NCBI RefSeq assembly: GCF_004212215.1
Contig: NZ_QVFV01000009.1
Span: 62,001 to 126,000 of the forward strand
Direction: 5' to 3'
Origin: Leptolyngbya iicbica LK
GTDB taxonomy: Bacteria > Cyanobacteriota > Cyanobacteriia > Phormidesmidales > Phormidesmidaceae
DNA length: 64,000 nucleotides
In this document: positions 3,429 to 7,542 of the stretch, one piece after another
How positions within the stretch are numbered: the first letter of the stretch is position 1
How the letters are laid out: every line of letters starts with the position of its first letter
Position numbers and translations under genes: made by a program
The notes under the pieces: model-generated
Told to the model about the DNA's origin: nothing
The model's input: only the letters and a program-made list of their open reading frames with translations
Databases searched by the model: none

Positions 3429-5075
3429 ATGGTAGGTTCAAAAATTACCAACGCTAAGACCTTTCCACTTGAAGACCTCGTAGGTGAAGTGTTATCTGGC
3501 TACATACGCATTCCTGACTTTCAACGGATATTTCGCTGGCAATGGGAAGATGTAAAAAGACTCATGGATAGTATTGTTCGTGGCTATCCAATTGGAAGCT
3601 TGCTTCTTTGGGCACGTCCTGCTCTAGAGGACACGCTGAAAATCGGAGCGCTAGAGATTAAGGCTCCTAGTCTAGATGAAGCAAGATGGGTTGTTGATGG
3701 TCAACAAAGGCTTACTAGTCTTGCGAATGCATTGAATGATGATGGCTCTAAGGATCCACGCTTTGCGATCGCTTATGATCTAGCACGCAAAGAATTTGTC
3801 AAGCCCATTGATGAAGAAATTCACGTCATCGGCCTACCGATAATTTTTGACTTACAGAGATTGTTGAAATGGTTTAGTGAGCATCCAGAATCCGCAATTT
3901 ATTTTGAAGAGGCCACAAGAGTCGCTAAAGCAATTCGTGAATATTCAATACCGGCTTATATCGTGAAGCAAGAAGATGAAGAGGTTCTTAGAGATATCTT
4001 CGACCGCATGAATAATTACGGCAAAAGGTTGACGCGTGCAGAAGTTTTCTCGGCCCTACATGGCGGACCAAAGTATGATGTAAAAAATATCATCGAAAAA
4101 ATCAGTGCGACTTTTCCCTTTGGTGAAATTGATGATAATACTGTCTTAAGTGCCATTCTAGCTCGCAGAGGCTCCGATGTAACACGTGATATTCGTGCGG
4201 AATTCAGTCAGAAGAAAAAATCATCAGAGTTTCCAGGTGAGACTCGTGAAGAAGCATACATTGCTGGGGAAAGAGCTTTATCAAAAGCCGTCAACTTCTT
4301 GCAGAGTGAAGCTGGAGTTCCACACTTTAGTTTTTTGCCCTATCGATACCTCCTTGTTGTTCTTGCGCGCTTCTTTGCGCATTATCCCGAACCTAAGCCC
4401 CGCAGCATTGAACTGCTCAGACGATGGTTTTGGCGTGCTGCTGTGATTGGCCCAGAGGCATTCAGTACTTGGACTAAAGCCAGCCGAACATTATGCTCGA
4501 AAATCATTCCTAATGATGAGGCAAAGTCTGTCACAGATTTAGTGAAGGCTGTTTCAAGTGACCGAAAGGATTTGAATCTGAGTGATTTCAATAGCACCTC
4601 GGCTAGTACTCGTATTCTTCTCTGCGCAATGTGGGCGCATCGGCCTCGGTCTTTCCTTACAGCGGAACATTATCTTCAAGAAGATCTAGGAAGAGCTCTT
4701 AAAGAAGAACAGACAGCAAGAGATATTGTTGAAATCATTGAACCATTAGGCAAAAAAACACCTACCGCAAATCGATTCATCTTTCTTGGAGAAGATTCTG
4801 TTGAGCACGTGAGAGATATTTTTCTAAATCAACCTATTACGATGTCTAGTTCATCTTGGACTAAATTGTTAAACTCTCACATTTTTGATGATGACATGAG
4901 ATCGTATTTGCTCGAAGGAAACGTCACTCAGTTTTTGGAACTTCGAGAGAACCGATTAAAAAAAATAACTGGGAATTTCCTTAAATCTATGATGAAGGCT
5001 TCGTTTGAGGATACACCCCCACTTTCCTCTTTAATTATTGATGAAGATGATGATGAGGCTCTAGTTGATGAGTAA
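3429..5075 (+). CDS. DUF262 (GmrS/ParB-like) domain protein, first gene of a DUF262-HipA operon
   Basis: The 548-aa protein opens with the DUF262 signature: IPDFQRIFRWQWEDVKRLMD, then DGQQRL at residues 90-95, the nucleotide-binding/hydrolysis loop of this ParB-related fold. The C-terminal part resembles the region that in GmrSD-type proteins precedes or contains a DUF1524 HNH nuclease (ANRFIFL; SHIF-N-FLELRENRL), but I see no HNH triad, so no nuclease domain is evident. The tail is acidic (DEDDDEALVDE). DUF262 proteins are common in type IV restriction and other defence loci. The gene overlaps the HipA-like gene by 8 nt. Codon use is AT-richer than the neighbours and I found a single HIP1 site in it, suggesting acquisition. 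ATG 3429 has no strong RBS. Confidence 0.8.
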   Translation: MVGSKITNAKTFPLEDLVGEVLSGYIRIPDFQRIFRWQWEDVKRLMDSIVRGYPIGSLLLWARPALEDTLKIGALEIKAPSLDEARWVVDGQQRLTSLANALNDDGSKDPRFAIAYDLARKEFVKPIDEEIHVIGLPIIFDLQRLLKWFSEHPESAIYFEEATRVAKAIREYSIPAYIVKQEDEEVLRDIFDRMNNYGKRLTRAEVFSALHGGPKYDVKNIIEKISATFPFGEIDDNTVLSAILARRGSDVTRDIRAEFSQKKKSSEFPGETREEAYIAGERALSKAVNFLQSEAGVPHFSFLPYRYLLVVLARFFAHYPEPKPRSIELLRRWFWRAAVIGPEAFSTWTKASRTLCSKIIPNDEAKSVTDLVKAVSSDRKDLNLSDFNSTSASTRILLCAMWAHRPRSFLTAEHYLQEDLGRALKEEQTARDIVEIIEPLGKKTPTANRFIFLGEDSVEHVRDIFLNQPITMSSSSWTKLLNSHIFDDDMRSYLLEGNVTQFLELRENRLKKITGNFLKSMMKASFEDTPPLSSLIIDEDDDEALVDE

Positions 5076-6306
5076 AGTCAAAAAAATCTATGGGATTTGG
5101 CTTTATCAAAGACGTATTGGCAGCATCACACTGAACGGTGGCATTATCCGTTTTCAATTGGATAATGATTACGTCCATGATCCAACTCATGCTGTTTTAG
5201 GTCTCGTATTTGAAGATGATCTTGAAGCCATCCACCGCTCCAAAAACCGATTGCCTCCGTGGTTTTCAAACCTACTTCCAGAAGGGCGATTGCGTCACTG
5301 GATTGCTGAAGATGCAAGCGTAGATGAAAATAAGGAAATAGAGCTACTACTCAAGGTTGGCCATGATTTGCCTGGGGCAATTCGAGTCGCCGAAGCAGAA
5401 ATTGGTCAGACAGAATTTGATAGTACTAGACGCGAGATAGTTTCAGATGCAGATGCCGGGAATCTCCAGAGAGACATTTGGCGGTTTTCGCTGGCTGGAG
5501 TTGCCCTCAAATTCTCGATGTTGAATGTTGGTGAAAGATTTACCTCGCCAGGTGTTGGCGAGGGTGGTGACTGGATTATTAAGCTTCCAGACCGTAGCTA
5601 CCGCCATGTACCAATTAACGAATTTTCAATGATGGAACTTGCGCGTCGGGTCGGCATTGACGTACCTGAAGTGCGTCTTGTTCATCGAGAACAGTTAGCT
5701 GATGTACCTGATGACCTATGGCCTGAATTTGAAAATATGGCCTACGCAATTCAGCGCTTTGATCGCACCCCTTCAAGAGAGTTGATTCATATTGAGGATT
5801 TTGCACAGGTCAGAAACCTTTATCCTCATAAGAAGTATACGGGCACGTTTGAGACACTCGCAAATTTGATTTATCGTCAGTATGATACAAATTCATTGAT
5901 TGAATTTACACGAAGACTAGCGTTCAACTATGTCATAGGCAATGGTGATGCACACTTGAAAAACTGGTCGTTGATATACACCGATCCTCGCCGACCAGTT
6001 CTTTCTCCCGCCTATGATTTAGTTTCAACAGCCGTATATCGTCCATCAGGAAACCCTGAAGACCTTGGTCTGAAATTTGCAAAGTCTAGGAGCTTCGACT
6101 CAGTTACACTCGAAAATTTCGAAAGATTAGAAAGAAAAGTCAATGCTTCTGGAATTGGCTTACGCGATGTAGCGCATGAAGTTATTCAAAAAACAATGTC
6201 ATCCTGGCCAGAAATTGAGGAAATACTGAAAGATTATCCTTGGCTTCAAAAAAAAATTGGTGAAGGAATTTCGGCGCGTACCTCAGCAGTATTAGTCAAA
6301 CAATGA
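5068..6306 (+). CDS. HipA-like serine/threonine kinase (type II toxin family), without adjacent HipB
   Basis: The 412-aa protein has the full HipA layout: an N-terminal beta domain (YGIWLYQRRIGSITLNG, LPEGRLRHWI), then FSLAGV-KFS, ATP-lysine motif WIIKLPD with Lys172, IQRFDR, the IHIEDFAQ loop, the catalytic loop GNGDAHLKNWSL (Asp294, Asn299) and metal-binding LSPAYDL (Asp317). All catalytic positions are present, so an active kinase is expected. Canonical HipA phosphorylates glutamyl-tRNA synthetase; the target here is unknown. ATG 5068 lies inside the DUF262 gene (8-nt overlap), implying translational coupling. No HTH HipB-like ORF lies on either side, so the DUF262 protein takes the genomic place of the antitoxin. 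Confidence 0.88.
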   Translation: MSKVKKIYGIWLYQRRIGSITLNGGIIRFQLDNDYVHDPTHAVLGLVFEDDLEAIHRSKNRLPPWFSNLLPEGRLRHWIAEDASVDENKEIELLLKVGHDLPGAIRVAEAEIGQTEFDSTRREIVSDADAGNLQRDIWRFSLAGVALKFSMLNVGERFTSPGVGEGGDWIIKLPDRSYRHVPINEFSMMELARRVGIDVPEVRLVHREQLADVPDDLWPEFENMAYAIQRFDRTPSRELIHIEDFAQVRNLYPHKKYTGTFETLANLIYRQYDTNSLIEFTRRLAFNYVIGNGDAHLKNWSLIYTDPRRPVLSPAYDLVSTAVYRPSGNPEDLGLKFAKSRSFDSVTLENFERLERKVNASGIGLRDVAHEVIQKTMSSWPEIEEILKDYPWLQKKIGEGISARTSAVLVKQ

Positions 6307-6534
6307 GTGAGGCAATCAATTTTGCCCCCTCAAAATTATGCAAGACGCTCTTAAATAGCAATTTTTAGCAATTTTCCTATGTTGATCGCTGAAATGATTT
6401 TAGAGCGATCGCCCCAATCGCATCCGAGTCATTTTGAGCGATCGCGTCCAACCCACTGACTCTTCCATTAAGGCTGTGGCGGAATGGGCAGTTTTGGCGA
6501 CAATGGATATCAAAGCGATCGGAGAGTCTCGATC

Positions 6535-6798
6535 ATGCAAATTATGCTTGACCTGCCAGATGAGCTGATGCAGCACTTCAACTCAAATCGCCTGCCCCAG
6601 GAGATCTTGGAAGCGCTTGCCATGCAAGCATACCAGACCGAAAAAATTACTCACGCAGAGGTCGGGCGCATTCTCGGGCTCTCGTCCCGCTGGGCCGTTG
6701 ATGAGTTTTTGAAAGCTCACAGAGCCGATTTACACTACGACGAAACTGATTTGGAGCGCGATCGCGCAACTCTCCATCAACTCTGCCAAAGTAGTTGA
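6535..6798 (+). CDS. UPF0175 family protein (putative antitoxin)
   Basis: An 87-aa protein starting at ATG 6535, chosen because GGAGAG lies 8 nt upstream; the frame stays open back to 6484. The sequence fits UPF0175: an N-terminal strand (MQIMLDLPDEL), then a helical segment with ITHAEVGRILGLSSRWAVDE and the conserved end ADLHYDETDLERD. UPF0175 proteins are small predicted HTH antitoxins, usually paired with a PIN-domain or similar toxin. No PIN gene is present here; the next gene, 23 nt downstream, is a GIY-YIG nuclease, followed by another small protein. The pairing is therefore unusual and the toxin-antitoxin role is inference. Confidence 0.75.
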   Translation: MQIMLDLPDELMQHFNSNRLPQEILEALAMQAYQTEKITHAEVGRILGLSSRWAVDEFLKAHRADLHYDETDLERDRATLHQLCQSS

Positions 6799-6821
6799 AT
6801 GGCACCCAAGCTCTTATTTCT

Positions 6822-7199
6822 ATGTCAACGAGCGATTCTGAATTAAAGGCCCAAGCTCGAAGCATTCTAGACGCGATCGCCTTCACACCGTTCGAGCAAT
6901 GCCAACCACTAACCCGCGATTTTAATTTGATTCCCTCACGTCCTGGTATTTATGCAATTCGCCATAGAATTCATGGGTTGCTTTACATCGGTAAAACCAA
7001 AAGTTTGCGAGGTCGTTTTACAGGTGGTCACAAAGCATTTTTGTGGGCATGGCTTGATAGGTATCGCGATGAAGATGTTCGCATAGCGATCCAGGTAATT
7101 CCTTACTGGAAAAACCCCACGTTACTATTGGAGTTAGAGGCCATCATTCTCAGAGCGACTGAACCTCCATATAACGCTCAGATTCCAACAGAAAGGTGA
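6822..7199 (+). CDS. GIY-YIG domain nuclease, small
   Basis: A 125-aa protein. It carries the GIY-YIG core: GIY at residues 42-44, YIG at 55-57 within LLYIGKTKSLRGRF, Arg63/Arg65, His70, a Glu in LLLELEA (104-106) and a terminal PYN (Asn118). Single-domain GIY-YIG proteins of this size cut nucleic acid or act as repair or mobile-element endonucleases; no DNA-binding extension is visible. The open frame extends to a TTG at 6795 overlapping the UPF0175 stop, but ATG 6822 is the more conventional start. The gene sits 23 nt after UPF0175 and 4 nt before the next ORF, so the three are probably co-transcribed. Confidence 0.78.
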   Translation: MSTSDSELKAQARSILDAIAFTPFEQCQPLTRDFNLIPSRPGIYAIRHRIHGLLYIGKTKSLRGRFTGGHKAFLWAWLDRYRDEDVRIAIQVIPYWKNPTLLLELEAIILRATEPPYNAQIPTER

Positions 7200-7203
7200 T
7201 GCT

Positions 7204-7410
7204 ATGCCAGCTAAACTGCAAGAACAACTTTCCCGTGCCGACGCTGAAGTAATTTTAGAGCGGCTGCCTGAGCGCATACGGCAGGCTTTGAGCGATCGCG
7301 CCCAAGACATTGACTATCCCATCGAGGCTGTGGTGGAAATGGCGATCGCCAGCTTCCTCGACTCCGAAGCTTTGGGCTTTGCTGATTGCCAACCGGGACG
7401 GGGACAGTGA
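7204..7410 (+). CDS. Small conserved cyanobacterial protein, 68 aa
   Basis: Starts 4 nt after the GIY-YIG stop, so it is the third gene of this small cluster. The protein is helical, with LPERIRQALSDRA, then YPIEAVVEMAIASFLD and a C-terminal FADCQPGRGQ. The middle resembles the C-terminal helix of ribbon-helix-helix antitoxins, but I cannot demonstrate that fold. From memory, proteins ending in FLD...FADC occur across cyanobacteria as unannotated short genes. HIP1 sites occur inside the gene, so it looks native. Function unknown. Confidence 0.6.
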   Translation: MPAKLQEQLSRADAEVILERLPERIRQALSDRAQDIDYPIEAVVEMAIASFLDSEALGFADCQPGRGQ

Positions 7411-7542
7411 TTGCAAGTTTGATAGGCGATCGCCCCAATTACATCCGAGCCACATGGAGCGATCGCTGATTTTGAGCTAAGAGGTGCCATTTTTTTTGCA
7501 ACCCGACGGCTTTTGGCAATCGGGGTGGCGACAGTCGCAGAG

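What the first reader, a model, noticed from the sequence alone, without database searches (positions are those of the whole stretch)
3429..6306. DUF262-HipA operon: a HipA-like kinase whose partner is not HipB
Two genes overlap by 8 nt: a DUF262 protein with intact DGQQR loop but no visible HNH nuclease, and a HipA-like kinase with Lys172, Asp294, Asn299 and Asp317 all present. HipA toxins are normally preceded by a HTH antitoxin (HipB). Here a ParB-like NTPase-fold protein of restriction/defence origin takes that place. The segment is AT-richer than its surroundings and carries only one HIP1 site that I could find. A system in which DUF262 senses nucleic acid or modified DNA and releases a kinase to stop growth would be new to me; that mechanism is inference.
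Basis: partly seen in the sequence, partly recalled or inferred. Interest (0 to 1): 0.75.

Follow-up and report, generated by a model that had tools for sequence, protein, structure and literature searches.

The report
DUF262 sensor paired with HipA kinase
Bacteria from several phyla carry a conserved two-gene unit in which a restriction-enzyme-like protein that has lost its cutting site sits where the usual antidote gene of a growth-stopping kinase would be, suggesting that the kinase has replaced the nuclease as the weapon.

Summary
In detail: DUF262 (3429-5075) overlaps a HipA kinase (5068-6306) by 8 nt. The pair is a conserved module: of 54 loci found by DUF262 alone, 49 have HipA directly downstream. 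Starting from HipA, 18 of 19 actinomycete hits have DUF262 upstream; in Pseudomonadota 15 of 17 have a HipB-like HTH_3 gene instead, and both DUF262 cases lie in the genome used as search centre. HipA catalytic residues are invariant in 54 of 54 rows. The DUF262 keeps DGQQR and BrxU-like domains, but the HNH histidine is gone in 41 of 41 group members, while 8 of 11 relatives without HipA keep the motif. HipA-partnered DUF262s form one clade (100/100) and most carry a C-terminal tail that a strict pattern finds in 0 of 11 others. Best reading: a nuclease-dead, NTPase-gated sensor/antitoxin restrains HipA, the kinase being the effector. Sensing, inhibition and phage defence are inferred. My searches of the held library found no paper describing the pair, but HipAD (HipA kinase, another non-HipB partner) and ptuXYZ (DUF262 without HNH) are close. 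New variant, not categorically new.

The parts
3429..5075 (+). DUF262 / GmrSD_N protein, 548 aa, HNH site lost, proposed sensor-antitoxin
   Evidence: ORF; Pfam GmrSD_N 1.2e-30; model aligned to BrxU (Z 16.5, rmsd 15.1, 441 residues)
3471..4061 (+). GmrSD_N (ParB/Srx-like NTPase) domain, residues 15-211
   Evidence: ParB chains Z about 5 over about 93 residues
3558..3572 (+). RLMDS motif (RLFDS of BrxU, nucleotide binding)
   Evidence: sequence; family consensus RLFDS; role of the motif from passages of PMC8565348
3696..3710 (+). DGQQR motif, residues 90-94, invariant in 41 of 41
   Evidence: role in NTP hydrolysis from passages of PMC8565348 and PMC11662687
4716..4781 (+). Degenerate HNH site, residues 430-451; the column aligned with the catalytic His (I436) holds no His in 41 of 41
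5004..5033 (+). Conserved C-terminal tail FEDTPPLSSL (residues 526-535), found in most DUF262 proteins of HipA pairs
   Evidence: low confidence (pLDDT about 50-60) in the model
5068..6306 (+). HipA-family Ser/Thr kinase, 412 aa, proposed effector; starts inside the DUF262 gene
   Evidence: fold match to E. coli HipA (3dnv, TM 0.73 by target) of a homologue's model
5095..5388 (+). Couple_hipA N-terminal domain, residues 10-107
   Evidence: E 1.2e-20
5485..6207 (+). HipA_C kinase domain, residues 140-380
   Evidence: E 2.4e-46
5488..5511 (+). Gly-rich loop S141-K148 (E. coli S150, G153, K157)
   Evidence: S, G and K invariant in 54 of 54 rows
5947..5964 (+). Catalytic loop D294-A-H296-L-K-N299
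   Evidence: D, H and N invariant in 54 of 54 rows
6016..6018 (+). Mg-binding D317
   Evidence: invariant in 54 of 54 rows

Best explanation
The two genes are one module. The DUF262 protein is a BrxU/SspE/DndI-like, NTP-using sensor whose HNH nuclease site has decayed. It has taken the place of HipB and holds the HipA kinase inactive, perhaps through its conserved C-terminal tail. When its NTPase domain meets its ligand (probably foreign or altered DNA), the restraint is lifted; HipA then phosphorylates a translation factor (E. coli HipA targets glutamyl-tRNA synthetase) and growth stops, an abortive-infection-type response. Shown here: conserved pairing and order, intact kinase site, intact NTPase motifs, lost nuclease site, a tail typical of the HipA-paired proteins. 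Inferred: inhibition, sensing, release, phage defence, kinase target.
For: 49 of 54 DUF262-first loci have a HipA match directly downstream on the same strand (5 of these HipAs are broken: L005, L008, L009, L022, L048); 44 have a HipA ORF of at least 400 aa, all within 129 nt. HipA-first: 18 of 19 actinomycete HipAs have DUF262 upstream (16 of 17, two more known; at least 4 of the 19 were already among the DUF262-first loci). Among cyanobacteria 2 of 2, one being the window itself. No third conserved gene. Related HipAs at 36-44% identity have HTH_3 (HipB-like) genes in the same place and order: 15 of 15 non-centre pseudomonadote cases and 8 of 8 sampled plasmid cases, so DUF262 stands where the antitoxin stands. 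Kinase residues invariant in 54 of 54. DGQQR, P-x-F-Q-R and FDRMNN invariant in 41 of 41. HNH His in 0 of 41 members of the window's group (3 of them now without HipA); the aligned HNH motif is seen in 8 of 11 DUF262s without HipA and, by pattern, in 0 of 49 and 0 of 12 of HipA pairs. One DUF262 clade at 100/100. Tail motif, strict pattern: 45/49, 11/12 and 5/10 in HipA pairs, 0/11 without. HipA alone is broken or missing in 8 loci against at most 2 for DUF262 alone, as expected if HipA is the harmful part, though too few to be significant.
Against: No direct evidence of toxicity, inhibition, sensing or defence. No defence-island signal: no PADLOC family matched more than 2 of 141 flanking ORFs from 21 loci, though single strong hits occur (such as PDC-S48, E 2.8e-241). 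No relative in the viral contigs by a search that finds close relatives only. The AlphaFold2 model of a DUF262-HipA read-through has pTM 0.59, the tool gives no inter-domain error, and the tail is low-confidence in it, so it says nothing usable about an interface. The BrxU match has rmsd 15 A: the domains align, not the whole as a rigid body. In Pseudomonadota no HipA outside the centre genome has DUF262 (0 of 15). The strict tail pattern misses 4 of 49 and 5 of 10 paired proteins, was chosen after seeing the tails, and one protein without HipA (L060) has a similar TPEFNLDDD tail that just fails it. Resemblance of the DUF262 tail to tails of the HTH partners failed two weight-matrix tests (2 and 4 of 23 at p<=0.05). 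In E. coli the HipB tail is not needed for HipA binding but is a Lon signal (passages of PMC3376134). One HipA (L112) has no DUF262 in the 360 nt after its contig start.
Confidence: 0.5

Rival explanations
1. An ordinary stability or persistence toxin-antitoxin pair with an unusual antitoxin: DUF262 simply neutralises HipA and represses the operon through its ParB-like domain, with no sensing of phage or modified DNA.
For: Two-gene, often overlapping, antitoxin-first order as in hipBA; related HipAs use HTH antitoxins in the same position; patchy spread, with the DUF262 absent from 5 of 5 other same-genus genomes searched; on a conjugative Azospirillum plasmid beside a recombinase gene; no defence-island signal.
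Against: A 548-aa protein with invariant NTPase motifs and BrxU-like domains is more than a neutraliser needs; the DUF262 proteins whose function is described in the papers seen here (GmrSD, BrxU, SspE, DndI) belong to restriction or defence systems.
Confidence: 0.27
2. The kinase regulates the DUF262 protein: HipA phosphorylates DUF262 and DUF262 is the effector, acting on DNA by NTPase or an unrecognised nuclease activity.
For: DUF262 is found without HipA in 3 loci (L013, L015, L046), so it may act alone; H299 is invariant and H318 and H484 are conserved in 37 of 41.
Against: HNH His lost in 41 of 41; in 2 of the 3 HipA-less cases the DUF262 tail has decayed too; HipA-only losses look like loss of the effector.
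Confidence: 0.12
3. Chance neighbours in a horizontally acquired AT-rich patch.
For: The segment is AT-rich, HIP1-poor and not found behind the same ABC transporter in 4 same-genus genomes.
Against: Same order and near-contact in 49 of 54 loci from Cyanobacteria, Actinomycetota, Pseudomonadota and Myxococcota, and again from the HipA side.
Confidence: 0.01

Closest known systems
hipBA type II toxin-antitoxin (E. coli K-12 HipBA)
   Same: Full-length HipA with both domains and all catalytic residues compared; partner gene first, HipA second, overlapping or nearly so; related HipAs have HTH_3 partners elsewhere
   Different: Partner is a 548-aa DUF262 protein with no HTH domain found by Pfam instead of a small HTH protein
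HipAD / DS-6 (HipA-family kinase + DUF3037/DUF1829; phage defence; passages of PMC13092281)
   Same: HipA-family kinase with a partner unlike HipB, proposed there as a toxin-antitoxin defence system
   Different: Partner there is DUF3037/DUF1829; here GmrSD_N. DUF262 has 0 occurrences in that paper's main text
Hip kinase operons with HIRAN, HipS, resolvase-like or Stl-like antitoxins (hipIN, hipJS, hipMP and others; passages of PMC8262856)
   Same: HipA-homologous kinase with a noncanonical, in part DNA-binding, partner
   Different: DUF262 is not among the partners named in the passages seen (words beginning 'DUF' have 0 occurrences in the main text)
BrxU / SspE / DndI / GmrSD type IV restriction and related DUF262 nucleases
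   Same: DUF262 domain, RLFDS and DGQQR motifs, aligned along the length (Z/rmsd/residues: BrxU 16.5/15.1/441, SspE 9.6/15.8/441, DndI 8.3/9.3/399)
   Different: HNH site lost; effector supplied by a separate kinase gene
PADLOC PDC-M55 (ATPase + M55B + DUF262)
   Same: DUF262 protein matches PDC-M55C (E 1e-58)
   Different: No ATPase or M55B gene conserved with the pair; HipA instead
ptuXYZ (DUF262 + PtuA-like ATPase + PIN'-YoeB; section 26 of PMC11980606 read)
   Same: DUF262 protein without HNH next to a toxin-type effector
   Different: Three genes, RNase-like effector, ATPase present

Membership tests
HipA kinase family | Couple_hipA and HipA_C domains above curated cut-offs | tested here: met
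HipA kinase family | Catalytic D, H, N, Mg-binding D, ATP Lys, Gly-rich loop Ser and Lys | tested here: met
   54 of 54 rows including E. coli HipA
HipA kinase family | Kinase activity and growth arrest | not testable with these tools
   needs experiment
hipBA type II TA module | HTH-type HipB antitoxin gene beside HipA | tested here: not met
   Upstream gene is GmrSD_N with no HTH hit; 41 of 41 group members have GmrSD_N and no HTH family was listed
hipBA type II TA module | Antitoxin gene first, toxin second, adjacent | tested here: met
   positional only
hipBA type II TA module | Partner neutralises the kinase | not testable with these tools
   needs co-expression test
GmrSD/BrxU type IV restriction enzymes | DUF262 domain with DGQQR | tested here: met
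GmrSD/BrxU type IV restriction enzymes | DUF1524 HNH nuclease motif (DHIYP) | tested here: not met
   0 of 41 have a DUF1524 Pfam hit; His absent from the aligned column in 41 of 41
PDC-M55 | M55A ATPase and M55B genes with the DUF262 gene | tested here: not met
   no third conserved gene; contrast the Paracoccus plasmid locus, which has all three
ptuXYZ | PtuY ATPase and PtuZ PIN'-YoeB genes | tested here: not met
   only DUF262 and HipA are conserved
HipAD (DS-6) | Partner with DUF3037 and DUF1829 | tested here: not met
   partner hits GmrSD_N only above cut-off
Anti-phage defence system | Protection against phage | not testable with these tools
   neighbour scan gave no defence-island signal, which neither proves nor excludes it

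The most novel reading that the evidence does not exclude
A lineage of type IV restriction sensors gave up its own nuclease and recruited a HipA kinase as effector, so that NTP-dependent recognition of foreign or modified DNA is converted into protein phosphorylation and translation arrest instead of DNA cutting, with a conserved C-terminal tail of the sensor acting as the kinase-holding peptide.
Probability: 0.35. Interest if true: 0.82.

Novelty: new variant of a known kind. Interest (0 to 1): 0.62.

Why it matters
If true, it links two well studied but separate fields: restriction by DUF262 enzymes and HipA kinases, best known for persistence. It would give a HipA kinase a defined trigger and show that DUF262 sensors are exchangeable input modules that can drive a nuclease, an RNase or a kinase. 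The pair is small, complete in two genes and present in cultured strains (Salinispora, Streptomyces, Leptolyngbya PCC 6406), so each step can be tested directly.

Tried and rejected
Chance adjacency: rejected by conservation from both ends. Hidden HTH or HNH in the DUF262 protein: none listed by Pfam in 41 members; the HNH position is recognisable but lacks the His. A weak VIA match of residues 391-501 to the SaCas9 stretch 516-644 (Z 2.6, rmsd 4.3, 99 residues) fits an HNH-like remnant but is too weak to rest on; that this stretch of SaCas9 is its HNH domain is recalled.

A shared HipA-docking tail on DUF262 and HTH partners: by eye many HTH partners end in RPAYxLDEDD-like tails and this looked like the DUF262 tail; two weight-matrix tests with shuffles did not support it, so it is not used as evidence. 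The tail patterns were chosen after seeing the tails. Strict: 45/49, 11/12, 5/10 in HipA pairs, 8/23 in HTH partners, 0/11 without HipA, 1/3 in HipA-less members of the group. Loose: 48/49, 11/12, 8/10, 17/23, 4/11 (4.2 expected) and 1/3, so the loose form does not discriminate. L060, without HipA, ends in a similar TPEFNLDDD that the strict form just misses. The set of 49 is the window plus 48 of the 54 loci (left out: L013, L015, L046 without HipA, L045 and L049 at contig ends, L009 broken) and includes loci whose HipA is broken.

Decay asymmetry: HipA alone broken or missing in 8 distinct loci (L005 = L108, L008, L013, L015, L022, L046, L048 = L114, L116) against DUF262 alone in at most 2 (L090 split frame; L112 no DUF262 visible); both broken in L009; L045 has a split DUF262 but ends before HipA could be seen, and L049 ends inside DUF262. 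Too few for significance, and draft errors are possible. L053 at first looked like a broken DUF262, but the stretch before the match is a run of N. An early listing counted L022 HipA as intact; it is split over two frames.

Defence-island test: 141 flanking ORFs of 21 loci. 22 loci had been picked by me; L002 and 4 further ORFs were dropped to meet size limits, and a crude ORF picker also left out ORFs over 1000 aa. No PADLOC family hit more than 2 of 141; 25 of 37 matching families were shown. No random control was run. Empty site: flanking homology in 4 same-genus genomes stops at the end of the ABC transporter, so no clean empty site. Viral contigs: no relatives. Partner history: 2 changes on the HipA tree, direction unresolved. 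Upstream ORFs of L069 and L070 (31% identical HipAs) were not identified. Neighbours were inspected for 13 of the 64 plasmid records with a DUF262 match: the 2 best have HipA, the other 11 do not; these 11 are the comparison set, not a random sample.

Literature, all in the held open library: DUF262+HipA (1 paper, PMC11980606, where HipA occurs only in the references), PDC-M55 (0), GmrSD+HipA (the same 1), DUF262+toxin-antitoxin (15 listed; I looked into 3: PMC11980606, PMC8565348, PMC11662687), HipA/HipB/phage defence (100 held at least 4 of 5 terms, 15 listed), HipB tail (9), HipAD or DUF3037 (57, 12 listed, most unrelated), HipA with DNA-sensing and other terms (0). I also saw passages of PMC11706625 (HipA next to HIRAN genes; DUF262 0 occurrences). 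Subscription papers and preprints were not searched, so absence from print is limited to these searches.
Full report
What is there. The window holds two genes on the + strand: a 548-aa DUF262 (GmrSD_N) protein at 3429-5075 and a 412-aa HipA-family kinase whose ATG at 5068 lies inside it, giving an 8-nt overlap. The segment is AT-richer than the rest of the window (GC 0.426 against 0.551) and nearly free of HIP1 sites (1 against a mean of 5.5). In four same-genus genomes the upstream ABC transporter is 79-88% identical in DNA, but homology stops at its end and neither gene is found in the stretch of about 8 to 10 kb that follows. Among 29 genomes of relatives searched, only the window's own genome and one other of the same family have the DUF262. 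This fits horizontal gain.

The pair is conserved. A scan of one genome per species gave 54 loci with DUF262 relatives (40-52% identity, two at 73 and 76%), from Cyanobacteria, Actinomycetota, Pseudomonadota and Myxococcota. In 49 of 54 a HipA match follows directly on the same strand; five of these HipAs are broken (L005, L008, L009, L022, L048). In 44 the HipA ORF is at least 400 aa (L022 among them by an artefact), and all 44 start within 129 nt of the DUF262 stop; leaving L022 aside, 27 overlap it by 4-26 nt (starts chosen by rule). Of the five without HipA, two end too close to the contig end (L045, L049) and three (L013, L015, L046) lack it. Clustering of ORFs of 60 aa or more in 57 loci found no third gene conserved with the pair; judged by the coordinates of the examples printed, the other large clusters were frames overlapping the two genes. 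Two Azospirillum plasmids, one typed as conjugative, carry a more distant version annotated as DUF262 then HipA.

The reverse test, starting from HipA. Cyanobacteria: 2 of 291 genomes have a match at E<=1e-30 and both have DUF262 upstream, but one is the window itself. Actinomycetes: 18 of 394 genomes, 19 HipAs at E<=1e-45; DUF262 is upstream in 18 (16 of the 17 examined, and the loci of L006 and L026), and one (L112) shows none in the 360 nt available. L006's genome was the centre, and at least L005, L026 and L048 had also been found from the DUF262 side. Pseudomonadota: 15 of 398 genomes, 17 HipAs; 15 have a small upstream gene that Pfam calls HTH_3 in 15 of 15; the 2 with DUF262 (one split by a frame change) both lie in the genome used as centre, so outside it the count is 0 of 15. 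In the Actinomycetota phylum sample (296 genomes, E<=1e-25) 4 matched: 2 with DUF262, one of them the centre, and 2 more distant ones (31%) with other, unidentified upstream ORFs. On plasmids, 8 of 8 HipA relatives that I sampled from 40 listed (1067 records matched; 38-42% identity) have an annotated HTH gene immediately upstream, each overlapping HipA by 4-11 nt. So the pairing is the rule among actinomycete members of this HipA group, and HTH partners are the rule among proteobacterial ones.

The kinase looks intact. E. coli HipA S150, G153, K157, K181, D309, H311, N314 and D332 correspond to S141, G144, K148, K172, D294, H296, N299 and D317, and each is invariant in 54 of 54 aligned HipAs, DUF262- and HTH-partnered alike (the set was built from HipA frames long enough to align, so most broken copies are not in it). 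A predicted structure of a homologous chain matches E. coli HipA (3dnv, Foldseek E 4e-17, TM 0.73 by target).

The DUF262 protein looks like a restriction sensor without a nuclease site. The model (pLDDT 86, pTM 0.63) aligns with BrxU along its length (Z 16.5, 441 residues), SspE (9.6, 441) and DndI (8.3, 399), with rmsd of 9 to 16 A, so domain by domain rather than as a rigid whole; its N-terminal domain matches ParB proteins (Z about 5, about 93 residues). DGQQR, P-x-F-Q-R and FDRMNN-x-G are invariant in 41 of 41 members of the window's group (three of these, L013, L015 and L046, now lack HipA). In BrxU, RLFDS and DGQQR are tied to nucleotide binding and hydrolysis, and DHIYP is the HNH motif (passages of PMC8565348). 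In DndI the R87A change in DGQQR abolishes ATP hydrolysis, and ATP hydrolysis changes the distance between its domains (passages of PMC11662687). Pfam finds GmrSD_N in 41 of 41 and DUF1524 in none. At the aligned HNH position, DUF262 relatives without HipA read HHIYP, HHFFP, DHIFP, HHIFP, HHYFP or HHMMP in 8 of 11; the window reads VEIIEP, and the column of the catalytic His holds no His in 41 of 41. A pattern for the motif in the C-terminal part finds it in 0 of 49 and 0 of 12 DUF262s of HipA pairs (one of the 12, L090, is only a C-terminal piece mostly outside the searched part). That the 11 comparison loci have no HipA within 2.5-4 kb was checked by profile and tblastn. The three relatives that also lack the motif have other genes close by: ATPase plus M55B in L059, a protein with AbiC/AbiP matches in L060, and an ATPase gene a little further off in L128. 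So loss of the nuclease site seems to go with having a partner; the 11 were taken from the plasmid search and are no random sample.

The HipA-partnered DUF262s form one clade against the 11 others (28 rows, 100/100). Most share a C-terminal tail outside the folded part (FEDTPPLxxL in the window group; DRPSIxxL or RPPLxDL in distant ones), found by a strict pattern in 45 of 49, 11 of 12 and 5 of 10 proteins of HipA pairs and 0 of 11 others. A matrix made only from the distant group finds it in 44 of 49 window-group proteins and 0 of 11 controls at p<=0.05. Of three proteins that lost HipA, two have a decayed tail. This fits a HipA-contact or regulatory peptide. Limits: the pattern was chosen after seeing the tails; L060, without HipA, has a similar tail that just misses it; and shared descent alone could explain part of the conservation. 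The further idea that HTH partners carry the same peptide was tested and not supported.

On the HipA tree DUF262 and HTH partners need two changes (2-3 in bootstraps) and the deep order is unsettled; some DUF262-partnered HipAs (35-38% identical to the window's) are as distant as the HTH-partnered ones. A single old pairing with one or two partner exchanges fits; the direction is open.

How it most likely works. Shown: one conserved unit, intact kinase site, intact NTPase motifs, lost nuclease site, antitoxin position. Inferred: DUF262 restrains HipA and lets go when its NTPase domain meets a ligand, probably DNA, so that the kinase stops translation. The tyrosine involved in phosphorothioate sensing in DndI is Phe in this family; since P-x-Y-Q-R is also found in 0 of 11 comparison DUF262s, this says little about the ligand. 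Against a defence role: no defence-island signal in 141 neighbouring ORFs of 21 loci, although single strong PADLOC hits occur. An ordinary stability or persistence pair remains a fair rival.

Known relatives. HipAD/DS-6 is a HipA-family kinase with a DUF3037/DUF1829 partner; it protects against phage and mutating a key predicted catalytic residue of the kinase abolished defence (passages of PMC13092281). Hip operons with HIRAN, HipS, resolvase-like and Stl-like partners are catalogued without DUF262 in the passages seen (PMC8262856). ptuXYZ joins an HNH-less DUF262 protein to an ATPase and a YoeB-type RNase (section 26 of PMC11980606). PADLOC lists PDC-M55 with a related DUF262. The present pair differs from each by a tested feature. 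I therefore call it a new variant of a known kind; my searches of the held library found no description of it.

Noticed in passing
window 6484-7199 (+): Directly downstream, a UPF0175 gene (6484-6798) overlaps a small GIY-YIG nuclease-domain gene (6795-7199): another compact two-gene unit that might be toxin-antitoxin-like.
   Followed up: no
window 6384-6489 and 7228-7484: Intergenic stretches similar to repeated stretches downstream of the same ABC transporter in two of four same-genus genomes.
   Followed up: no
L060:3000-5593: A plasmid-borne DUF262 protein without the HNH motif, preceded by an adjoining gene with AbiC/AbiP matches in PADLOC: another possible DUF262 plus effector pair.
   Followed up: partly
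L125:2498-4919: DUF262 followed after about 20 nt by a DUF5677 gene on a Rhizobium rhizogenes plasmid.
   Followed up: no
L013:3999-4951: Where HipA should be, the reading frames look like an IS256-type transposase (recalled resemblance, not searched); the DUF262 tail is also degenerate.
   Followed up: partly
L056 and L057 (own genome, other contigs): Two further DUF262-like frames (862 and 618 aa open frames) in the same genome, without HipA in the short stretch fetched.
   Followed up: no
L112:1-420: A HipA of this family near a contig start with no DUF262 coding visible in the 360 nt upstream.
   Followed up: partly
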